A stretch of DNA of 64,000 nt from Thermoflexibacter ruber (GTDB lineage: Bacteria; Bacteroidota; Bacteroidia; Cytophagales; Thermoflexibacteraceae): NCBI RefSeq assembly GCF_900113045.1, contig NZ_FONY01000021.1, positions 1-64,000 of the forward strand, given 5' to 3'. Below the pieces are notes generated by a model that saw only the letters and a program-made list of their open reading frames with translations, was not told where the DNA came from and did not search any database. A program made the translations under genes and the position numbers. Shown one piece after another: positions 1 to 44,617 of the stretch (the stretch's first letter is position 1; each line of letters opens with the position of its first letter).

Positions 1-341
1 ATGGAGATAAGGGTTATATTACTGCACTAAAAGAAGAATTTGCAGAAAGAAACTTGCACTTAATCACTAAGTTAAGAGCTAATATGAAGAAAAATCAAGT
101 ATTAACAGAACCACAAGCCTATTATTTAAGGCATAGAGGATTGATAGAAACTGCTTTCGATGTACTTAAAAATCAACTAAATATAGAACATTCAAGGCAC
201 AGAAGCCCTAAAAATTTTCTTATTAATTTGCTGGCAGGCTTAATTGCTTATACATTTTTGGAAAAAACACCAAACATAAAAGCATATCCACAAAAATTAG
301 AGGACAAACAAATTGTATTTATTCAAGAAAATGTAAAATAA
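1..341 (+). CDS. IS982-family transposase, C-terminal part (cut by window edge)
   Basis: The reading frame is open from the left window edge and ends at 341, so only the C-terminal part of a transposase is seen; upstream codons read GDKGYITALKEEF. The segments IEHSRHRSPKNF and LLAGLIAY are the typical C-terminal signature of IS982-type DDE transposases, and the conserved Glu of the DDE triad is plausibly in RGLIETAFDVLKNQ. It lies 51 bp upstream of the DGR target gene, so an insertion sequence borders the retroelement. Whether the element is intact cannot be told, and no terminal inverted repeat could be defined without the left end. The family call comes from motif recall. Confidence 0.8.
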   Translation, partial: GDKGYITALKEEFAERNLHLITKLRANMKKNQVLTEPQAYYLRHRGLIETAFDVLKNQLNIEHSRHRSPKNFLINLLAGLIAYTFLEKTPNIKAYPQKLEDKQIVFIQENVK

Positions 342-365
342 TTCACGTTAATACTATTTTTCATA

Positions 366-385
366 CTCGCTTTTACGCAAGCGAG
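366..385 (+). promoter_or_regulatory. Hairpin directly upstream of the DGR target gene
   Basis: Arms CTCGCTT (366-372) and AAGCGAG (379-385) form a perfect 7-bp stem with a 6-nt loop, ending 7 nt before the ATG of the variable protein. The same arm pair, in the opposite order, occurs just downstream of the template repeat (4164-4170 and 4189-4195). It may affect translation initiation of the target or be a leftover of the insertion sequence end; the role is unknown. Confidence 0.5.
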
Positions 386-392
386 GCAGTCC

Positions 393-2072
393 ATGCCCGA
401 AAAGCGAGTAGCTCTCTTAATTGGCAATGCCAACTACGCCGGAGAGGCAAAGCTCTACAACCCAATTAATGACGTAAACTCACTCACTACCGCATTGAAG
501 AAGGTCGGATTTGAAGTTACTCTCTTCTACGACCTTTCCCTGACAAACATGAAGAGCAAAGTAGGCGAATTTATCAGTAAGATTACCTCGCTCAAGCAAC
601 AAGGGTATTACGTAACTGCCCTCTTTTACTTCTCGGGGCATGGAATGCAAGACAACGGAGAAAACTTCCTCTTCCCCATAGGGGCAGAAGTAAACAAGCC
701 CGCAGACCTCCCTTATGAGTGCTACCCACTCTCTCGCTTGGAAGCCAACCTCAGCCAAAGCAAGGCAGATATGCAGATAATCATGATAGATGCCTGCCGC
801 GCCAACCCCACAGCCAAAAGCTGGACACGGGACTTCCCCTCCATAGACCCCAACGCAGGCTTAACTACCCCCACATTTACCCGAAGAGATAATCAAAGTG
901 CCACTATCAACTTTGCCCAAGCACAAGGCACACTCATCTCCTTTGCTGCCGCCCCAGGACAAAAGGCTCTGGATGGCAGAGGAGGCGAAAATAGCCCCTA
1001 TATCAGGGCGTTTACTACTGTACTTGACCAATATCCTACCGAAGTCTTAGAAAGTTTTTTCAGAAAAGTAAATGAATATGTAGCCCAATATACCCAAGGC
1101 GTTCAAGAATCTTGGAGCACTAACAATGTAAAAGGCAACTTTTACTTCCAAAAACCCGATACCAAACCCGTAACTACCCCAACTACTGACAACAGAGAAG
1201 AAAAAGACTACCAACGTGCTATTCAAAGAGATGAAAAAAGCCTCTACGAAACTTTCCTCGAGGACTACCCCAACAGCAAGTACAAAACTGAAATCTCCCA
1301 AAAACTTAAAGCCAAACAACAAACCACTAACAACTCATCACTAATCACCAAACAAGACCTCCTCCCCTTCGAGCCTGAAATGGTCTATGTGCAGGGAGGC
1401 ACCTTCGAGATGGGCTGCACCTCCGAACAGCGAGACTGCTATAATAATGAAAAACCTGTGCATAGCGTAACAGTGGATAACTTTTACATGGGAAAGTACG
1501 AGGTAAGCCAAAAAGAATGGGTAGCTGTTATGGGTAGCAATCCTTCTTACTTCAAAGGAGATAACTTACCTGTAGAGCAAGTTTCTTGGGAAGACGTGCA
1601 AGAGTATATCAAAAAGCTAAACGCCAAAACAGGCAAAAAATACCGACTGCCCACTGAAGCAGAGTGGGAATATGCTGCAAGGGAAGGAGGGAAAAAAGTC
1701 CTCTTTGGCAATGGGAGCAATACCGCAGACCCCAGCCAAATGAACTTTGATGCTTCCGCTTCTTACAAAAAATCGTATTCAGTGGCAGGGACTTATAGAG
1801 GTAAAACTGTACCTGTAGATTCTTTTTCTCCTAATAGCTTAGGACTTTACAATATGTCTGGCAACGTATGGGAATGGTGTAGCGATTGGTATGGGGCTTA
1901 TTCAGCTTCTCCACAAACCAATCCAACGGGTGCAAATACAGGCTCTTACCGAGTGGGTCGGGGCGGGAGTTGGCGCCACAACCCGCGGTCCTTGCGTGTA
2001 GCGGTTCGTGTCAACAACTACCCTACGTATCGTCGCAGCAGCATAGGTTTTCGTCTTTCCAAGATGGATTAA
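393..2072 (+). CDS. DGR variable protein: caspase-like protease fused to FGE/C-type-lectin-fold domain
   Basis: 559 aa with no signal peptide, so probably cytoplasmic. Residues ~1-255 are a caspase-like (peptidase C14) domain starting at RVALLIGNANY, with a catalytic His83 in FSGHG and Cys135 in IDACR. A Thr/Pro-rich and charged helical linker (~256-325) leads to a formylglycine-generating-enzyme/sulfatase-modifying-factor domain (~330-557) with GGTFEMG, NPVEQVSW-like and RLPTEAEWEYAAR motifs. FGE domains in DGR targets adopt a C-type-lectin fold and display diversified residues; they are binders, not oxidases. The last 43 codons (517-559) are the variable repeat. The architecture suggests a diversified recognition module controlling a protease, a layout typical of bacterial conflict or death effectors; that role is inferred. 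ATG at 393 precedes the first conserved strand directly. The ORF is first in the DGR cassette. Confidence 0.93.
   Translation: MPEKRVALLIGNANYAGEAKLYNPINDVNSLTTALKKVGFEVTLFYDLSLTNMKSKVGEFISKITSLKQQGYYVTALFYFSGHGMQDNGENFLFPIGAEVNKPADLPYECYPLSRLEANLSQSKADMQIIMIDACRANPTAKSWTRDFPSIDPNAGLTTPTFTRRDNQSATINFAQAQGTLISFAAAPGQKALDGRGGENSPYIRAFTTVLDQYPTEVLESFFRKVNEYVAQYTQGVQESWSTNNVKGNFYFQKPDTKPVTTPTTDNREEKDYQRAIQRDEKSLYETFLEDYPNSKYKTEISQKLKAKQQTTNNSSLITKQDLLPFEPEMVYVQGGTFEMGCTSEQRDCYNNEKPVHSVTVDNFYMGKYEVSQKEWVAVMGSNPSYFKGDNLPVEQVSWEDVQEYIKKLNAKTGKKYRLPTEAEWEYAAREGGKKVLFGNGSNTADPSQMNFDASASYKKSYSVAGTYRGKTVPVDSFSPNSLGLYNMSGNVWEWCSDWYGAYSASPQTNPTGANTGSYRVGRGGSWRHNPRSLRVAVRVNNYPTYRRSSIGFRLSKMD
1941..2068 (+). 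repeat. DGR variable repeat (VR)
   Basis: This 128-bp stretch at the 3' end of the caspase-FGE gene aligns without gaps to 4009-4136. There are 20 mismatches; 19 sit where the template has A (9 A to G, 6 A to T, 4 A to C), and one is a template T against VR G at 2063. Thirteen codons change: residues 519, 522, 528, 529, 532, 533, 538, 540, 543, 546, 548, 549 and 550. The invariant 3' segment (about 2042-2062) is adenine-poor in substitutions and should contain the initiation-of-mutagenic-homing (IMH) site. Confidence 0.95.
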
Positions 2073-2118
2073 GTTTTAGTATTCTTACCTTTTTACCTTT
2101 TAGCCCCCAATACAGTAG

Positions 2119-2150
2119 GTCTGACTTCCTAAGTCAGACACTTTTTTTTG
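2119..2150 (+). terminator. Hairpin with T-run after the VR gene (terminator and/or DGR homing hairpin)
   Basis: Arms GTCTGACTT (2119-2127) and AAGTCAGAC (2131-2139) form a perfect 9-bp stem with a 3-nt loop, followed by a run of eight T. It is 50 bp past the VR. It has the look of a rho-independent terminator, but DGR target genes also often carry a short hairpin just downstream of the IMH that promotes homing. Palindromes of the same style occur elsewhere (44561-44602), so it may be a dispersed repeat reused here. Confidence 0.7.
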
Positions 2151-2237
2151 TTTATATATAAACAAAAAAAGGAGCTAATATATTTGTTTTTTATTTTATA
2201 TATAGTAAATTTATCTCACATATATCATTTTGTATAT

Positions 2238-2675
2238 ATGCTGATTCGTATATTTACCTTGCCTTTTGACGAGGTTACGCAAGGTTTTCCTGACCACATC
2301 ATCGCAGATTTTTGCTTGAATAAAAAAGTGCATGAGGTCAAAAGTCGCTTTTTTACGAGTGAAGGTAAGCCTTACTGGTCTGTATCAGTGCTTTACGACG
2401 TATTGCCCAAAGGAGAGGAGAAAATCAGAGAACTGGACGATACGCAAAAAGCGGCATACATCAAGCTCAAAGAGTGGCGCAAACTCAAAGGAGAAAAAGA
2501 GGGCTTCCCTGTGTACTTGATATGCAACAATGCCCAGCTAATGGACATAGTTCTGCGAAAGTGCATTACCTTAGAGTCCCTCAAAGACATCAAGGGCTTC
2601 GGCAGGAAAAAAATAGATAAGTACGGCAAGGAAATCATAGAAATTATCAAAGCGTTTTATCTACCCGAAAAGTAA
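2238..2675 (+). CDS. HRDC-domain DGR accessory protein
   Basis: 145 aa when started at the ATG at 2238; an upstream in-frame ATG at 2148 would add a hydrophobic leader lying in the terminator T-run and is unlikely. The C-terminal half (~70-140) is an HRDC (helicase and RNase D C-terminal) nucleic-acid-binding fold: a helix with LKEWRKLKGEKEGFP, then PVYLICNNAQL, then LKDIKGFGRKKIDKYG. HRDC proteins are a known class of DGR accessory genes beside the RT. The stop codon abuts the ATG of the Avd gene, so translation is probably coupled. A role in binding the TR RNA or cDNA intermediate is inferred. Confidence 0.85.
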   Translation: MLIRIFTLPFDEVTQGFPDHIIADFCLNKKVHEVKSRFFTSEGKPYWSVSVLYDVLPKGEEKIRELDDTQKAAYIKLKEWRKLKGEKEGFPVYLICNNAQLMDIVLRKCITLESLKDIKGFGRKKIDKYGKEIIEIIKAFYLPEK

Positions 2676-3020
2676 ATGACAGACAACTTCCAATACCCCA
2701 TATTTGAGCATTGGTATAAAACCACCGATTGGATTTTGGACAAATGCGACAAAATGCCCAAGCAAACTCGCTTTACGGTAAGTAGTCGGATAGCGGCTTT
2801 GACCATAGAAAACTTAGAGCTACTCACCGAAGCGATTTATTCCAAAGCCAAAATCCCCCTACTCCAAAAGGTAAATATGAATTTGGAAAAGTTGCGTATC
2901 TTTTTTCGTCTTTCCAAAGACAGGCAATATATGAGCCTTGCCCAATACGAATATGGAATCCAAGAACTCAATCAAACAGGCAGGATGTGCGGAGGCTGGC
3001 TCAAAGAATGCAAAGAATAG
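2676..3020 (+). CDS. avd: Avd-like four-helix-bundle DGR accessory protein
   Basis: 114 aa, all predicted helical, with the bAvd-type start YPIFEHWYKTTDWIL, then MPKQTRFTVSSRIA and the C-terminal [19 protein letters not shown]. Accessory variability determinant proteins form pentameric positively charged barrels that bind the DGR RT and are needed for TR-primed cDNA synthesis. Its ATG follows the HRDC stop with no gap, and its 3' end overlaps the RT start by 34 bp, consistent with one co-translated operon. Confidence 0.92.
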   Translation: MTDNFQYPIFEHWYKTTDWILDKCDKMPKQTRFTVSSRIAALTIENLELLTEAIYSKAKIPLLQKVNMNLEKLRIFFRLSKDRQYMSLAQYEYGIQELNQTGRMCGGWLKECKE

Positions 3021-4024
3021 GAAACTTATATGCTACTTTTTGTAGCTTTGACAACTTGCTTTTGGCATACTACAAAGCCAAGAAAGGAAGCAGGAAAAAC
3101 CAAGAAAGTGCCGCTTTTGCTTTTCATTTAGAAAAAGAACTGCTCTCCCTCAAAGAAGCCTTAGAAAGCCACACCTATCAGCCTGCCTCTTATCGGCATT
3201 TTCAGATTCACGACCCCAAAGAGCGCACAATTTCTGTGGCTACTTTTCGAGATAGAGTAGTGCATCACGCCCTTGTCAATGTGTTAGAGCCTATTTACGA
3301 AAAATGTTTTATCTATGATTCTTATGCTACCCGTAAAGGCAAAGGAGTTCATAAAGCCGTTTTGCGTTCTCAAGCCTTTTTACGTAAAAATCGTTGGTTT
3401 TTCAAAGCAGATATTGAAAAATTCTTTGATTCTATTGACCATGAAATACTTATACAGATTTTAGAAAAGAAAATCAAAGACAAAAAGCTGATAGAAGTTA
3501 TCAAAAGAATCATTGGCAATGGAGGCAAAGATGGGAAAGGGCTACCTATTGGCAACCTCACGAGTCAGTTTTTTGCCAATGTTTACCTCCACCCCTTTGA
3601 CCTTTTTGTCAAGGAAACCCTCAAAGTGAAGTGTTACCTGCGTTATATGGACGACTTTGTATTGTTCAGCCCTGATAAAACCCATCTCAAAATGTGGAGA
3701 AATCAAATCCAAAGTTTTCTTTCTACCCAATTAGGGCTTTTCTTGAAAGAAAATGCTTGTTTTTTTAACCAACAGGCAAATGGCTTGAGTTTTTTGGGCA
3801 GGCGAGTTTTTCCTGCTATGCTTCGCATCAGAAATGAAAACCTGCGTAGAGTAATTAAAAGGCTTCAAAACAAAGAAACTGCCCTGCAAAAAGGTAAAAT
3901 TACAGAAGCACAGTTTTTAGAAAGCGTGAATAGTTATTGGGCTTATTTGTCTTATTTTGGCAATTATGAGCTGAGAAATAGTATCTTGCAAAAGGCAGCG
4001 AGCAGGAAGGCTCTAACCGAGTGA
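2987..4024 (+). CDS. DGR-type reverse transcriptase
   Basis: 345 aa from the ATG at 2987 (a second Met at 3008 is also possible). RT motifs are in order: [10 protein letters not shown] (~87-96), the first catalytic Asp in [14 protein letters not shown] (Asp142), the DGR/group II-like [15 protein letters not shown] (~187-200) containing the IGxxxSQ signature that marks DGR RTs, and YMDDFVLF (220-227) with the catalytic Asp pair 222/223. A short thumb region follows. There is no maturase or endonuclease domain, as is usual for DGRs. The enzyme reverse-transcribes TR RNA with adenine infidelity. Its last codons (from 4009) are part of the TR itself. Confidence 0.95.
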
Positions 4025-4136
4025 ATCGGGGCGGGAGTTGGAACAACAACCCGCAGAACTTGCGTGTAGCGAATCGTAACAACAACAACCCTACGAATCG
4101 TAACAACAACATAGGTTTTCGTCTTTCCAATATGGA
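4009..4136 (+). repeat. DGR template repeat (TR)
   Basis: This copy is the adenine-rich partner of 1941-2068. Read in the VR frame it is dominated by AAC/AAT codons ([20 protein letters not shown]), the classic TR design: any change at the first two positions of AAY codons gives sense codons only, so diversification cannot create stops. The first 16 bp overlap the end of the RT gene, including its TGA at 4022-4024. It is a template, not a coding sequence; the short open frame over it has no independent support. Confidence 0.95.
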
Positions 4137-4282
4137 AATCTTCTCGATTGCTTGCTTTCAAGGAAGCGAGTACCATGAAATTTTCTATCTCGCTTGCTGT
4201 CTTGCGTGCCAAAAACACCAAATAAACCCAACCTTGTGCTGTGAGTAGTAGAGTTTTTATCGAAAGTGGCACAAGGTTCTCT
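4137..4282 (+). ncRNA. Probable 3' part of the DGR TR RNA (spacer) with inverted repeats
   Basis: No gene is seen here. In characterised DGRs the RNA continues past the TR into a structured spacer needed for cDNA priming; since the TR is last in this cassette, that spacer should lie here. Two perfect inverted repeats fit a folded RNA: AAGCGAG (4164-4170) with CTCGCTT (4189-4195), and AACCTTGTGC (4230-4239) with GCACAAGGTT (4269-4278), a 10-bp stem closing a 29-nt loop. The extent of the transcript is inferred. Confidence 0.45.
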
Positions 4283-4636
4283 GTACCCAACTACCCCTGT
4301 ACCCAACAGTTTCCAACTGTTGGGATAGATTTTTTACCTATTTAGAAAATAGGTGCTACATACCCAACAGTTTCCTAACTGTTGAAATAAAAAATACTTC
4401 GTTTTTTCATCTACTTAGGAAAGTAGGTGTTACGTACCCAACTACCCCTGTACCCAACAGTTTCCTAACTGTTGGGATAGGTTTTTTACCTATTTAGAAA
4501 ATAGGTGCTACATACCCAACAGTGTACAACTGTTAGAATATATTGATATAAAAAATACTTCGTTTTTTCACCTACTTAGGAAAGTAGGTGTTACGTATCC
4601 AACTACCCCTGTACCCAACAGTTTCCTAACTGTTGG
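4283..4636. repeat. REP-like palindrome array upstream of the RAYT gene
   Basis: About 2.3 tandem units start at 4283, 4434 and 4595 (periods 151 and 161 bp). Three palindrome types alternate. Type A has arms CCAACAGTT/AACTGTTGG (4302-4324, 4363-4384, 4453-4476, a decayed one at 4515-4535, and 4614-4636). Type B has arms ACCTATTT/AAATAGGT (4336-4354, 4488-4506). Type C has arms CACCTACTT/AAGTAGGTG (4408-4429, 4569-4590). Such clustered imperfect hairpins beside a Y1 transposase are typical of REP/BIME elements, which RAYT proteins recognise and cut as hairpins. Confidence 0.88.
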
Positions 4637-4705
4637 TATTGTAAATATATTTTTTTACTATATTTATACACTTGGAAAGTGCATACTACAATCAAAGTAA
4701 GTACC

Positions 4706-5353
4706 ATGATGCAAAATACTGATTTTTATAGAGCAAAACTCCCTCATTGGCAACCACTTGGCGGTACTTTCTTCGTAACTTACAATCTTAACGGCTGCAT
4801 ACCCAGAGAAGTATTTGAGCGGTGGCAAGAGGATTATGAAATAGAAAAGCGAGCCATTTTACAAAAAAATCCAATTTCCCCTATTGAATTGGACAACCTC
4901 GATAAGCGTTATTTCGCCAAGCGAGACAAATACTTAGATACTCTACAATCTGGCAATCACTACCTCAAAGACGACAGAGTCGCCAAAGTTGTAGCTGACA
5001 GTTTGCATTATTGGGACAACAAACGGATTGAGTTATATGCCTATTGCATCATGTCCAATCATGTTCATGTTGTTCTCCGTTTGTTAGGAGATGATGAAGC
5101 TGAAAAAGTGATTTATTTGCAGACCTTGATGCACTCCATCAAACTCTTCTCCGCAAGAAATTGCAACAAAATCTTAAACTTGTCAGGACAATTTTGGCAA
5201 CATGAAAGCTATGATAGGCTGGTACGTGATGCTGATGAATTAGATAGGATTTTGTTTTATGTGCTTAATAACCCAGTGAAGGCAGGTTTATGCTTGCGAA
5301 TAGAAGATTGGAAATATTCCTACATTAAGCCTGACTACAACCAATACTTTTAA
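4706..5353 (+). CDS. REP-associated tyrosine transposase (RAYT, Y1 HUH family)
   Basis: 215 aa from ATG 4706 (an upstream GTG at 4679 and a second ATG at 4709 are alternatives). The HUH metal-binding motif is in MSNHVHVVLRLL, preceded by YAYCI, with the N-terminal FFVTYNLNG strand of the IS200/RAYT fold. The catalytic Tyr is probably in the later helix around FWQHESYDRLV or the DELDRILFYVLNNPVKAGL segment typical of the family. RAYTs are single-copy domesticated transposases linked to REP palindromes. Here palindromes of the same three types flank it on both sides, so gene and repeats form one system. It lies directly downstream of the DGR. Confidence 0.9.
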   Translation: MMQNTDFYRAKLPHWQPLGGTFFVTYNLNGCIPREVFERWQEDYEIEKRAILQKNPISPIELDNLDKRYFAKRDKYLDTLQSGNHYLKDDRVAKVVADSLHYWDNKRIELYAYCIMSNHVHVVLRLLGDDEAEKVIYLQTLMHSIKLFSARNCNKILNLSGQFWQHESYDRLVRDADELDRILFYVLNNPVKAGLCLRIEDWKYSYIKPDYNQYF

Positions 5354-5355
5354 CT

Positions 5356-5490
5356 TTTACCCAACCACCTCTGTACCCAACAGTTTCCAACTGTTGAGAT
5401 AGATTTTTTACCTATTTAGAAAATAGGTACTACATACCCAACTGTTGGTATAAATATGATTTGCTTTCCACCTACTTAGGAAAGTAGGTG
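5356..5490. repeat. REP-like palindrome unit downstream of the RAYT gene
   Basis: One further copy of the unit found upstream of the RAYT gene: a type A hairpin at 5377-5396, type B (5410-5428), a shortened type A core (5437-5448) and type C (5469-5490, identical to 4569-4590). The order is the same as upstream, so the transposase gene is embedded in the array. Confidence 0.87.
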
Positions 5491-5556
5491 TTACGACATA
5501 TTAGATACTACATCGAAAATTCAAATAGGGTCTATGGTTTTTCATTAAAAAGGTAT

Positions 5557-5564
5557 TAACTTTG
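5557..5564 (+). promoter_or_regulatory. Bacteroidota-type -7 box TAACTTTG
   Basis: TAACTTTG matches the Bacteroidota TAnnTTTG -7 consensus and lies 42 bp before the ATG at 5606. No clear TTG is found at the -33 distance, so this is a moderate call. Confidence 0.45.
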
Positions 5565-5605
5565 GGATAAGGTATATTCTTTATAAAATTGTATCGTCAT
5601 TACTA

Positions 5606-6505
5606 ATGAAACGACTTTATTTACTTTTGTGCTTTTGCTTTATGTTTAATTCCTTCCTTGCTCAGGGGCAGGAAATATTTACTCAACAGGACTCTGCTTT
5701 TTTTGCTAACCAAAAAGCGGATATGAAGGCTTGGCTTGTCCAAGTAGGCATAGATAGCCTCAAAATCACAGATATTCGTATTCAGACAGTACCAAGCTAT
5801 GTAATTTTACGGGTTTATGCTTTATCACCTGAGGTATGGATAGCTTTGCGAGAAAGCTACCTATCCCAATACAAGCGTAATTTGGAAAAAGATATTTTTG
5901 AAAAATTTGTTTTTCTATGCGAAGTAGAAGCAAAGCAAGCGCTGCTTATCATAGAAGAGCCTACTGAAAGTCTGAGTAAGTTTGAGGTCAAAGCAGGACT
6001 TGACCCTGATAAAGACTACAGTTTTAATATCATTGAACATAATAAGCCCAAAGTTGCTCATGTAGAGAAATTCCAACTGCCTGCTGCTAAAATCATTCCA
6101 CCTAAGGAAGCAACCTCGATAGATGATTTTGAGGTTGCTCGATTACGTATTATTAGTATTTTACGCCAATATTACGCTAAGAAAGGGACTTGGTTCGAGC
6201 AGTCCAAGTTTGATGTCAAAGAGTCCATAGACAAGCAGGTCAAGATTATCATTACTAATCTAAGAAATGAGATGCTCCATGACCTATTTTTCGGTCATTT
6301 TGAGCGAATAGAACTGCGCTTTTACCTTACTAAAGAAGTAGAAAAAGTATTATTTGAGTGCATGATAGATGGCAAATATGGCACTTCCATTTTGCTTGCG
6401 CCTCGCAGTGATTATCACTACAAAGATATGGGCATACGTTACCAAAGCTACATTAATGATTATGCTTTGAAAATCAAGTCGTTACTGTATTATGCCTTAA
6501 AATGA
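5606..6505 (+). CDS. Secreted protein of unknown function
   Basis: 299 aa with a signal peptide: KR, then LYLLLCFCFMFNSFLA, with likely cleavage after AQG. The mature protein is soluble-looking and mixed alpha/beta; no family is recognised. It has a repeated structural feel: an early segment (IDSLKITDIRIQTVPSYVILR) and a later one (DKQVKIIITNLRNEM... RIELRFYL) are both short domains that could be duplicates, but similarity is weak. It starts a two-gene unit with the membrane protein 25 bp downstream. Confidence 0.75.
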   Translation: MKRLYLLLCFCFMFNSFLAQGQEIFTQQDSAFFANQKADMKAWLVQVGIDSLKITDIRIQTVPSYVILRVYALSPEVWIALRESYLSQYKRNLEKDIFEKFVFLCEVEAKQALLIIEEPTESLSKFEVKAGLDPDKDYSFNIIEHNKPKVAHVEKFQLPAAKIIPPKEATSIDDFEVARLRIISILRQYYAKKGTWFEQSKFDVKESIDKQVKIIITNLRNEMLHDLFFGHFERIELRFYLTKEVEKVLFECMIDGKYGTSILLAPRSDYHYKDMGIRYQSYINDYALKIKSLLYYALK

Positions 6506-6530
6506 ATATTGACCTATAATCACTAAAAAA

Positions 6531-7088
6531 ATGCAAAGCAAACATTTTATATGGGCAAATATCACATGGATAGGATTATTTGCTCTTTATCAAATATTTA
6601 GTTTTGAGCCTGACGAAGTGATTGGGGTACTACCTTGGATAGGGTTGCACACATTCTATTTTTTTATCTTAGTCAAATTTATAGCTATTTCTGCTCGTTT
6701 AGTTGGTGTAATTTGGATTTATGCCATTTTATTGATATTGATTATATCTTTCCATAAGCTATTAGGATTCATTAGCATAGAAGAAATGAATTATGGTATA
6801 GGTCTAATAGCCTTACTCTTTGGTTTTTATTTGCTAAGTCAGAGTCATCTTTTGAAAAAATATATCCAGCCATCGCCACCAACACCTGATGTTCTTGAGG
6901 GTTTAAGAAAAGTTTTAGTTCACATAGACAATGCGGATTTGGAAAAGGCTTTTGCTACCTTAGACCACATAGGTGTCCAAAATTCTACCTTCTCCAAACT
7001 CAAAAAGGAGTTTATTAGCGGGAAACAGGGATTTGATTTTGAAGACCGATTCAAGACAGCGATTAATGAATTAATCCATAGTCAATAA
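6531..7088 (+). CDS. Membrane protein with C-terminal helical domain
   Basis: 185 aa. Residues ~5-115 contain four hydrophobic segments (for example ITWIGLFALYQIFSF, LHTFYFFILVKFIAI, IYAILLILIISFH and IGLIALLFGFYLLS). The C-terminal ~60 residues (LEGLRKVLVHIDNADLEKAFATL to the end) form a soluble helical domain. Its pattern, with an amphipathic helix pair around LEKAF and then FSKLKKEFISGKQG, faintly recalls effector-associated adaptor domains found with caspases and STAND proteins; that resemblance is only an impression. It sits 25 bp behind the secreted gene, so the two are probably co-transcribed. Confidence 0.7.
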   Translation: MQSKHFIWANITWIGLFALYQIFSFEPDEVIGVLPWIGLHTFYFFILVKFIAISARLVGVIWIYAILLILIISFHKLLGFISIEEMNYGIGLIALLFGFYLLSQSHLLKKYIQPSPPTPDVLEGLRKVLVHIDNADLEKAFATLDHIGVQNSTFSKLKKEFISGKQGFDFEDRFKTAINELIHSQ

Positions 7089-7408
7089 CTTCGTTTGTAA
7101 TTATGACCATGAATCCAAACTGACAGATTCATTTATGAGAATCAACTTGTTATATTATACTTTTTAGCAGCTTAGAGAAAATTTTAATTAAATCAGTAGA
7201 AACCTAAGCTAATACGTTACCATTTTTCTAATATGAGCAATTCTTTGATGTAGCTTGGGATGGCTTAGATTTGCTTTTGCTCTCTACAAAAATAGACAAA
7301 AGGTTTAGGTTTTCCTTAGCAAAAGAAAAGTTTAACAAATAGACTTGTCTGAGCGAGATTTTTATAAAAAAGGCTTAACTTTAAATCACAATCCAAAGAC
7401 CAATTTTT
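7089..7408. other. Intergenic region, no gene seen
   Basis: This 320-bp AT-rich region has no convincing coding frame, RNA gene or palindrome. A possible -7-like TAACTTTA occurs about 30 bp before the next gene. Confidence 0.5.
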
Positions 7409-8029
7409 ATGAAAATCCTTATATTTCTATTATTGTGTTTTTACTTTTCTTTGAGTTATGCCCAGCAGTTACCTATTGTCAAAGCCCAAGCTACTCAAAA
7501 AGAGCGTTATTACGACTGGATGCTGGAGAAACCCAAACCCGGCGATGAGGGTCCTGACTTTTGGGTAACAGGCGATTGTTCTGAATTTGTAAACAGTCCC
7601 CAAGCCTCCTCCACCTTAGCCTCGCAAGGGAAAAATAGCTACCAAGCTAAAAATATCGCTGATGACGACCCTACAACTGCATGGGTAGAAGGGAAAGCAG
7701 ACTACGGCATAGGGGAATACATAGAATTTAAAACGGTATTTTTTTATACTTGCTGTATTCTTAATGGCTATCAGAAGGATAAAAATACTTGGGAAAATAA
7801 CTCCAGAGTAAAAAAACTACGCGTGTTTATCGAGGGCAAACCCATTTTTGAAGTAATTTTAGAAGACAAGATGGGCATACAAAGTTTTGCTTTCCCAGAA
7901 CACCTCAAAATAGACCCTAAAAAAACAGAAACAGGGGGAACAAAAGTAAAAATGCAGATTTTGGAAGTGTATGAAGGCAAAAAGTATAAAGACGTAGCTA
8001 TTTCAGAGATTTTTTTTGCTGGTTGTTAA
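7409..8029 (+). CDS. Secreted NADase-type glycan-binding (discoidin-like) domain protein
   Basis: 206 aa with a signal peptide (MKILIFLLLCFYFSLSYAQ). The mature part carries the segment KNIADDDPTTAWVEGKADYGIGEYIEF, the hallmark of the discoidin-like NADase-translocation/glycan-binding domain family, followed by the beta strands typical of that jelly roll. Several Cys occur (CSEF, TCC, and C-terminal AGC). It probably binds carbohydrate outside the inner membrane; there is no catalytic domain. The start was chosen at ATG 7409, which begins the signal peptide. It is monocistronic as far as can be seen. Confidence 0.75.
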   Translation: MKILIFLLLCFYFSLSYAQQLPIVKAQATQKERYYDWMLEKPKPGDEGPDFWVTGDCSEFVNSPQASSTLASQGKNSYQAKNIADDDPTTAWVEGKADYGIGEYIEFKTVFFYTCCILNGYQKDKNTWENNSRVKKLRVFIEGKPIFEVILEDKMGIQSFAFPEHLKIDPKKTETGGTKVKMQILEVYEGKKYKDVAISEIFFAGC

Positions 8030-8092
8030 ACCCGAACAAGATTAGTTTGCGAATTATTTAAGTGAAAAAGCATTATTATCAATCTTTTACAT

Positions 8093-8117
8093 CTGACAGG
8101 TTTGCGAAACCTGTCAG
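8093..8117. repeat. Perfect palindrome (REP-like)
   Basis: Arms CTGACAGGTTT (8093-8103) and AAACCTGTCAG (8107-8117) form an 11-bp stem with loop GCG, between convergent genes ending at 8029 and 8221. There is no T-run, so it looks more like a dispersed palindromic repeat than a terminator. Confidence 0.6.
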
Positions 8118-8220
8118 AGATGAGTATAAAAATCAATTTAAGTAAAAAGTAGTATTTACACGCACTTTTATCCAAATCCCTACCTCCAAAAGGAGAAGGG
8201 GACTTTAAGTAGCATAACTT

Positions 8221-10029
8221 TTATGACTGCCTCGTATTCAGTTTTCCCCATACTTTAAAAATAAAATATCCGCAAAGCAAAGCAAGCAAGGAAAGCCCAA
8301 TAGCAGGGACAGTATTTCCGTAAATCCATGAACCTGTGGCAAATAAAGCACTGTATATAGTGATAGAGCCTAAGAACACACAAAGCAATTCTTTGGCAAT
8401 GCCTCTGCTGTCTTCCTCCGCACTTTTTATGGGTGTGCCTTCTGCTTCAGCTTGGTCGACTACTGCTTTCCAACCTACTCCTCCTGGTCGTGTTAATTTG
8501 TAAAAAGAAATCAAGGTTTTCATGTCGGTTGGGCGAGTAGCCAGTGCTACACTTACCCAAGCAAGCGTAGTAATAAGTACACCTATGCACAACTGCCAAT
8601 GGCTTTCTAAGGGAGAAAATCCCAATACTTTTTCGTGTATAAAATGGAAATACAAGGCAATGAGGAAAGAAACAACCATAGCCGTAATTTCACTCCAAGC
8701 ATTGATGCGCCACCAGAACCAGCGAAGAATAAAAATAAGTCCTGTTCCTGCGCCTATTTGCAAGAGAATATCAAAAGTTTTCAAAGCACTTTCTAAGGAC
8801 AAAGCCAGCAAAGCCGCCAAAGCCATCAATACTATGGTAGAAATTCTACCAATATTCACCAGTTGTTTTTGAGAAGCATGGGGATTGATAAAGCGCAAGT
8901 AAAAGTCATTGGTGATATAAGACGAACCCCAATTTAACTGCGTAGAGATAGTCGACATAAAAGCGGAAATCAAAGAAGCAACTACTAAGCCCATTAAGCC
9001 CACAGGCAGATAAGTAAGCATAGCGGGATAAGCTAAGTCATTGCCTATTTTATCATCAGGAATATGGGGGAATTTTTCTTTGAGGCTTGCCAAATCGGGA
9101 AATACTATCATAGAGCAGAAAGCAACAATAATCCAAGGCCAAGGGCGCAAGGCATAATGTGCTGCATTAAAAAACAAAGTTGCACCTATGGCATGTTTTT
9201 CATTTTTGGCAGAAAGCATACGCTGGGCAATATACCCACCCCCGCCGGGCTCCGCCCCTGGATACCAAACGCTCCACCACTGCACCGCTAAGGGTATGAT
9301 AAAGAGCATGATAAGATTCTTAGTATCTGAAAAATCAGGAATAAAGTTGAGCTTATTTTGTAAATTGGGTTGTGCAAGTAGGTTATCCAAACCATTGATT
9401 TGAGGGAGGTTAAGCGCAACTATCGCAGCTCCTATAGAGCCAATCATCGCAATAATAAATTGGAAAAAATCGGTATAAAGCACTCCTTTAAGCCCTCCTA
9501 ATGAGCTATAAATGACAGTAACTATGGAAGCAATCAGCAAAGTTTGGACAGGGCTGAGGTTGAGCATTACGCCTCCTATCTTGATAGCGGCAAGGGATAC
9601 ACTTGCCATAATCATCACGTTAAAAAATACGCCTAAATAAATTGCCCTAAAACCGCGAATAAATGCAGCTTCTTTCCCACTATACCGTAGCTCATAAAAT
9701 TCTAAGTCAGTGATGACTTTTGAGCGTCTCCAAAGTTTGGCATAGATAAAAACGGTAAGCATACCCGTAAGTAAAAAAGCCCACCACACCCAGTTTCCTG
9801 CTACTCCGTTTTCTCTGACAATATTGGTAACTAAGTTGGGGGTATCCGCAGAGAAAGTAGTCGCTACCATAGATACGCCCAGTAGCCACCAAGGCATATT
9901 ACGCCCTGAGAGGAAAAAATCTTCCGCACTTTTGCCTGCATCTTTGGCTACGGCAAGCCCAATGGCTATGGAAAAAATAAAAAAAGCACCAATGATTGCC
10001 CAATCAATCCAAGAAAGTTCTAATGTCAT
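8221..10029 (-). CDS. Sodium:solute symporter family protein
   Basis: 602 aa, with about 13-15 hydrophobic segments, beginning with the SSS-type start WIDWAIIGAFFIFSIAIGL and then the conserved loop SAEDFFLSGRNMPWWLLGVSMVATTFSADTP. The family Na+-site region SLISAFMSTISTQLNWGSSYITND is present near residues 355-380. Members of this subgroup in Bacteroidota are annotated as sugar or solute symporters; substrate cannot be read from sequence. The C-terminal ~80 residues hold a cytoplasmic loop and two extra hydrophobic segments. It stands alone, convergent to the gene at 7409. Confidence 0.9.
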   Translation of the reverse strand: MTLELSWIDWAIIGAFFIFSIAIGLAVAKDAGKSAEDFFLSGRNMPWWLLGVSMVATTFSADTPNLVTNIVRENGVAGNWVWWAFLLTGMLTVFIYAKLWRRSKVITDLEFYELRYSGKEAAFIRGFRAIYLGVFFNVMIMASVSLAAIKIGGVMLNLSPVQTLLIASIVTVIYSSLGGLKGVLYTDFFQFIIAMIGSIGAAIVALNLPQINGLDNLLAQPNLQNKLNFIPDFSDTKNLIMLFIIPLAVQWWSVWYPGAEPGGGGYIAQRMLSAKNEKHAIGATLFFNAAHYALRPWPWIIVAFCSMIVFPDLASLKEKFPHIPDDKIGNDLAYPAMLTYLPVGLMGLVVASLISAFMSTISTQLNWGSSYITNDFYLRFINPHASQKQLVNIGRISTIVLMALAALLALSLESALKTFDILLQIGAGTGLIFILRWFWWRINAWSEITAMVVSFLIALYFHFIHEKVLGFSPLESHWQLCIGVLITTLAWVSVALATRPTDMKTLISFYKLTRPGGVGWKAVVDQAEAEGTPIKSAEEDSRGIAKELLCVFLGSITIYSALFATGSWIYGNTVPAIGLSLLALLCGYFIFKVWGKLNTRQS

Positions 10030-44560: not shown

Positions 44561-44602
44561 CCTGATTTTCCAAATCAGGTAATGACTGACTTGGAAAGTC
44601 AG
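44561..44602. repeat. Two adjacent REP-like hairpins
   Basis: Arms CCTGATTT (44561-44568) and AAATCAGG (44572-44579) with loop TCC; then CTGACTT (44586-44592) and AAGTCAG (44596-44602) with loop GGA. Both share the core form TT-N3-AA with the palindromes at 2119-2139 and in the RAYT arrays. They lie between surA-like and paralogue B genes. Confidence 0.6.
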
Positions 44603-44617
44603 GCTACAATCAACAAT

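What the first reader, a model, noticed from the sequence alone, without database searches (positions are those of the whole stretch)
4283..5490. RAYT gene embedded in an array of three alternating palindrome types
Upstream units of 151-161 bp and one downstream unit carry the same ordered hairpins A, B, A, C. The intact HUH transposase between them is the likely actor. The arrangement of three distinct hairpins per unit is richer than the usual paired REP/BIME and sits right behind the DGR.
Basis: partly seen in the sequence, partly recalled or inferred. Interest (0 to 1): 0.68.

Follow-up and report, generated by a model that had tools for sequence, protein, structure and literature searches.

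The report
RAYT gene inside its own REP array
A bacterial single-strand DNA transposase gene sits inside a small cluster of the hairpin repeats it probably cuts and copies; this is a known kind of arrangement, with an unusual spread of the four-base 'guide' next to the hairpins.

Summary
An intact RAYT (TnpA-REP) gene at 4706-5353 is flanked by hairpin repeats at 4284-4640 and 5358-5495. The two upstream units are 97% identical. A third unit is cut to one hairpin, and in the downstream unit the second A is a remnant.

The three 'types' are not independent. A is a REP on the + strand. B and C are inverted REPs, related by a compensatory base-pair change. The unit A-B-A-C is therefore two REPINs (A/B and A/C), the standard BIME design. 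Near-exact A, B or C occur nowhere else in this 5.5 Mb draft genome. However, a diverged family with the same guide, loop and REPIN layout is dispersed (25 palindromes within 3 mismatches), and B has a 2-mismatch relative elsewhere. Relatives carry the same design: 55 of 77 RAYT loci have GTAN-guided hairpins, including alternating two-type arrays. Mixed REP subfamilies at one RAYT are already published.

The DGR neighbourhood is real but shows no general link: 0 of 10 other DGR loci have a RAYT relative. The least ordinary point is that one REPtron carries GTAC, GTAG and GTAA guides, which predicts different cleavage sites. Verdict: a new member of a known kind, of modest interest.

The parts
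4706..5353 (+). RAYT / TnpA-REP gene (Y1 HUH transposase; N117-H118-V119-H120, W163-Q164, catalytic-type Y184 in YVLNNP; numbering from ATG 4709)
4284..4435 (+). upstream unit U1: spacer, REPIN A/B, REPIN A/C
4436..4596 (+). upstream unit U2, 97% identical to U1; inner A degenerate
4597..4640 (+). partial third unit: spacer and hairpin A only, about 66 nt before the gene's ATG
5358..5495 (+). downstream unit (138 nt): A, B, deleted A remnant (5437-5448), C
4302..4324 (+). hairpin A (REP), guide GTAC at 4299-4302; further A at 4453-4476, 4615-4636, 5378-5396; inner A at 4365-4384 (guide ATAC) and degenerate 4518-4534
4336..4354 (-). hairpin B (inverted REP), guide GTAG on - strand; also 4488-4506 and 5409-5429
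4408..4429 (-). hairpin C (inverted REP), guide GTAA on - strand; also 4569-4590 and 5469-5490
2119..2139 (+). solitary dispersed-family REP (GTAG-GTCTGACTTCCTAAGTCAGAC) behind the DGR target gene
44584..44604 (-). dispersed-family REP, paired with a second hairpin in a REPIN-like layout, in an intergenic gap

Best explanation
This is a REPtron: a RAYT (TnpA-REP) gene embedded in a local array of its own REP hairpins. A is a REP read on the + strand. B and C are two variants of the partner REP in inverted orientation, so each A-B or A-C pair is a REPIN, and A-B-A-C is two REPINs duplicated in tandem. The protein most likely binds single-stranded REP through the guide tetranucleotide and hairpin, cuts next to it with its tyrosine, and so moves or amplifies REPINs during replication. 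It probably also seeded the diverged, low-copy REPIN family scattered in this genome. Shown here: the gene, motifs, homology, array structure, pairing covariation, related dispersed family, and the same design in relatives. Inferred: binding, cleavage, mobilisation, and that this RAYT made the dispersed copies.
For: Protein: Y1_Tnp Pfam hit E 2e-6; NF047646 E 1e-21; profile to TnpA-REP 4ER8 E 8e-13 with the tyrosine helix aligned; N117, H118, V119, H120, W163 and Y184 invariant in 22 relatives. Flanking hairpins in relatives: 77 RAYT loci hold 304 hairpins against 20 expected by shuffling, and 202 with a GTAN guide against 2.9. The nearest relatives L013 and L014 (62% and 56% over the alignment) carry GTAG...GACAG[C/T]TTCCAA..., with the same core as A; that core is found 29 and 9 times in their genomes, 0 in the reversed control. 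The tree joins the window protein with L013/L014 (98/83) and L070 (92/82). L070 has an alternating A+/B- array on both sides of its RAYT. Dispersed family in the own genome: GTCTGACTTNNNAAGTCAGAC at 25 places, control 0; the ten sites first read carry GTAG, or GTAA/GTAG at one; several form REPINs ending in GGTGCTACA like A/B; B has a 2-mismatch copy at C107. Pairing across A, B, C and dispersed hairpins: 94% of cells paired against 72% mean (86% maximum) when arms are swapped. None of the three other Y1-type hits in the genome (C50, C77, C116) has GTAN-guided hairpins of this kind.
Against: Near-exact A, B and C are confined to this locus, so the array itself shows no recent dispersal. The stems of A differ strongly from the dispersed left hairpin, so the family link rests on guide, loop, layout and hairpin B. 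Only 4 of 6 A copies have GTAC (the two inner ones have ATAC), and in one studied system a GTAC guide abolished cleavage (PMC8266576), so some hairpins may be inactive. The assembly is a draft of 123 contigs.
Confidence: 0.85

Rival explanations
1. An autonomous IS200/IS605-type insertion sequence whose left and right end hairpins were tandemly duplicated; the element moves as a unit by peel-and-paste.
For: Same Y1 HUH enzyme superfamily; hairpins with guides on both sides.
Against: The gene is single copy in the genome. The protein matches the REP-specific model and TnpA-REP far better than IS200 enzymes. Hairpin pairs alternate in orientation on both sides, as in BIMEs, rather than one LE and one RE.
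Confidence: 0.06
2. The palindromes are ordinary transcription terminators or mRNA-stabilising hairpins, unrelated to the gene between them.
For: REPs can act as terminators or stabilisers in other bacteria (PMC3733652). The solitary copy at 2119 is followed by a T run.
Against: Guided hairpins flank RAYTs in 55 of 77 loci, with the core tracking the RAYT clade. Tandem units with alternating orientation are not terminator-like.
Confidence: 0.05
3. The array and RAYT are part of the DGR, helping mutagenic retrohoming.
For: They begin straight after the DGR's TR-adjacent hairpin. The second DGR of this genome also has a Y1-type gene right behind it. IS200/IS605 transposases are reported near DGR variable proteins in cyanobacteria (PMC7517822).
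Against: The two Y1 genes are of different subfamilies (about 26% identical). 0 of 10 other DGR RT loci have a RAYT relative within the flank held, some truncated. RAYTs in relatives sit at unrelated loci.
Confidence: 0.03

Closest known systems
REPtron of E. coli (tnpA-REP with Y and Z2 REPs in three REPINs)
   Same: Y1 HUH gene flanked by REP/inverted-REP pairs of more than one subfamily, each with a 5' guide; diverged subfamilies in one genome
   Different: E. coli REPs are high copy with GTAG guide and a bulged stem. Here stems are perfect, the array sequences are local only, guides are GTAC/GTAG/GTAA, and the protein has a longer N-terminal part.
TnpA-Y1 subclasses 2.7 and 2.4 of Quentin et al. 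2018 (PMC6006769; subclass 2.4 = Bertels RAYT group 4)
   Same: About 200-215 aa, NHVH, WQ, YxxNNP, long perfect REPs. E100 to D and H101 to R (W163 Q164 ... D169 R170) and an HUH-Tyr spacing near 66 fit 2.7 better.
   Different: Published guide is GT[AG]G; here GTAC and GTAA also occur. The subclass was not assigned with the authors' models.
REPtrons of Flexibacter sp. CG_4_10 (L013/L069), G032 (L014) and Lacihabitans sp. LS3-19 (L070)
   Same: 55-62% identical RAYT; hairpins with TTTCCWA-type loop; alternating REP/iREP; dispersed copies in the first two genomes
   Different: One palindrome family (L013, L014) or two (L070) rather than A plus two B/C variants

Membership tests
RAYT / TnpA-REP | Y1 HUH catalytic motifs and a single tyrosine, with REP-type W-Q region | tested here: met
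   NHVH, WQ, YVLNNP; best PDB match 4ER8
RAYT / TnpA-REP | passes the curated REP_Tyr_transpos cutoff (80 bits) | tested here: inconclusive
   77.3 bits, E 1e-21, just below
RAYT / TnpA-REP | single copy, not an IS with identical copies | tested here: met
   next-best hit 33% identical
REPtron (RAYT flanked by REPs) | guided hairpins on both sides of the gene, in alternating orientation | tested here: met
REPtron (RAYT flanked by REPs) | canonical GT[AG]G guide | tested here: inconclusive
   B has GTAG; A has GTAC (inner copies ATAC); C has GTAA
REPtron (RAYT flanked by REPs) | the same REP family dispersed in intergenic regions | tested here: inconclusive
   near-exact A/B/C absent; diverged family present
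REPtron (RAYT flanked by REPs) | protein binds and cuts single-stranded REP | not testable with these tools
   needs biochemistry
TnpA-Y1 subclass 2.7 | HUH and Tyr motif forms, D at E100, long canonical REPs | tested here: inconclusive
   motifs agree by eye; no subclass model run
IS200/IS605 IS | multiple near-identical copies with LE and RE ends | tested here: not met

The most novel reading that the evidence does not exclude
In this RAYT clade the fourth guide base is free. One enzyme serves three guide types in a single REPtron (GTAC on A, GTAG on B, GTAA on C), so the left and right hairpins of each REPIN are cut at different dinucleotides and excision is directional, much as left and right ends differ in IS200/IS605.
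Probability: 0.15. Interest if true: 0.5.

Novelty: new member of a known kind. Interest (0 to 1): 0.27.

Why it matters
It adds a Bacteroidota REPtron in which array units are recent tandem copies while the dispersed family is old and diverged. That is a natural setting to ask how REP families drift away from their RAYT. The guide variation (GTAG 143, GTAA 35, GTAC 21, GTAT 11 calls around 77 RAYT loci) is wider than the published GT[AG]G rule. It gives a direct test of whether the guide sets the cleavage site in this branch.

Tried and rejected
The idea that the palindromes are absent elsewhere was held at first. It was dropped after searches showed a diverged dispersed family.

A DGR-RAYT functional link: two of two DGRs in this genome have a Y1-type gene behind them, but 0 of 10 other DGR loci had a RAYT relative.

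Empty-site comparison: the downstream gene has only distant homologues (41% or less) and none in the two genus-mates, so insertion boundaries could not be read.

Viral or plasmid origin: IMG/VR patterns gave no confirmed relative. Plasmids gave only a 38% relative in Bernardetia and two weaker hits.

Rfam: no match at gathering threshold in 1-10000.

About 0.97 Mb of stretches, partly chosen around known hits, was scanned instead.

Full report
What is there. An ORF at 4679-5353 (likely start ATG 4706/4709) encodes a Y1 HUH protein. Pfam gives Y1_Tnp (E 2e-6). NCBIfam gives REP_Tyr_transpos (E 1e-21, 77.3 bits against a cutoff of 80). A profile of 22 relatives finds E. coli TnpA-REP 4ER8 first (E 8e-13). 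N117, H118, V119, H120, W163, Y168, D169 and Y184 are invariant in that alignment.

The array. Units U1 (4284-4435) and U2 (4436-4596) are identical at 146 of 150 aligned bases. A third unit is cut to hairpin A (4597-4640). One unit (5358-5495) lies behind the gene with an 11-nt deletion in its second A. Each REPIN-sized piece folds well below shuffles, and so does the 377-nt array (z -10).

The three hairpins. Read with the guide 5', A is GTAC-CCAACAGTTTCC(T)AACTGTTGG on the + strand. B is GTAG-CACCTATTTTCTAAATAGGT and C is GTAA-CACCTACTTTCCTAAGTAGGTG, both on the - strand. B and C differ by a compensated pair and one loop base. All share a TT-TCT/TCC(T)-AA top. A-B and A-C are therefore inverted pairs (REPINs), and the unit is two REPINs.

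Copies elsewhere. Near-exact A and C (up to 3 mismatches) occur only here; blastn of the array agrees. B has one 2-mismatch relative at C107. The palindrome GTCTGACTTNNNAAGTCAGAC, first noticed at 2119-2139 in the window, occurs at 25 places within 3 mismatches, with none for the reversed control. The first sites read carry GTAG. Several are REPINs with a right hairpin of ACCGAT type ending GGTGCTACA, as in A/B. In about 0.97 Mb of stretches, partly chosen around known hits, 16 guided hairpins met the loop filter, including six array copies and two off-type matches; shuffling gave none. Across A, B, C and the dispersed hairpins 94% of stem cells pair, against 72% (maximum 86%) when arms are swapped between sequences. 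My inference is that array and dispersed copies belong to one diverged family. The other three Y1-type hits (C50, C77, C116) lack such hairpins.

Relatives. Of 77 loci with a related RAYT, 55 have GTAN-guided hairpins within 600 nt. There were 202 such hairpins against 2.9 from mononucleotide shuffles. L013 (Flexibacter sp. CG_4_10, identified through the equal contig length of L069) and L014 have the A core GACAG[C/T]TTCC, dispersed 29 and 9 times in their genomes. Lacihabitans L070 has alternating two-type arrays on both sides. The tree places the window RAYT with L013/L014 (98/83) and L070 (92/82), away from the RAYTs of its own family. This suggests horizontal acquisition.

Known background. 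Quentin et al. 2018 (PMC6006769) describe REPtrons with several REP subfamilies in nearly half of cases, three REP types in E. coli, and subclasses 2.4/2.7 with long perfect REPs. The motif forms here fit 2.7 best, but no subclass model was run. PMC8266576 shows that the guide's last bases matter for cleavage: GTAC abolishes it in one system and moves the cut to GA/GT in another. Guides GTAC and GTAA in this array are therefore either inactive copies or a guide-flexible branch. Relatives show GTAA, GTAC and GTAT too, which argues that the variation is not just decay.

DGR neighbourhood. The DGR (target 393-2072, HRDC 2148-2675, Avd 2676-3020, RT 2987-4024, TR about 4020-4135) ends just before the array. 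A second DGR on C77 also has a Y1-type gene behind it, but of another subfamily, and ten other DGR loci have no RAYT relative. I treat the proximity as incidental.

Limits. The genome is a draft of 123 contigs. Searches used perfect stems only. Guide calls required GTA by construction. Activity is inferred, not shown.

Noticed in passing
window 4231-4276; L144 8142-8187: A conserved hairpin with internal loop, AACCTTGTGCTGTGAGTAG-[stem-loop]-TCGAAAGTGGCACAAGGTT (window form), follows the TR of both DGRs in this genome. The pattern CTGTGAGTAGN{5,30}CGAAAGTGG hits only 4 of 2.9 million IMG/VR contigs, and 3 of the 4 are next to DGR-type RTs. No Rfam match in the window; not found in the Bordetella phage BPP-1 spacer. 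Possibly a conserved DGR RNA motif.
   Followed up: partly
L144 6925-8886 (G000:C77 about 106.9-108.9 kb): Second DGR in the same genome (FGE-type target, HRDC-like ORF, RT, TR) followed by a Y1-type gene of another subfamily flanked by CAGGTTTTTAAAACCTG repeats.
   Followed up: partly
window 54-341: C-terminal piece of a DDE transposase (DDE_Tnp_1_3) at the very start of the contig, upstream of the DGR target gene: probably an IS at an assembly break.
   Followed up: no
L013 2290-2465: Compact tandem array of six REP copies at 28-nt spacing beside the RAYT of Flexibacter sp. CG_4_10, all in one orientation.
   Followed up: no
G000 sites C27:28468, C54:140097, C74:69360, C78:24552: The dispersed REPINs seem to share further flanking sequence (CGTTCTTGTGTAG on the left, CTACATTCAAAGAA on the right), as if part of a longer MITE-like element.
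   Followed up: no
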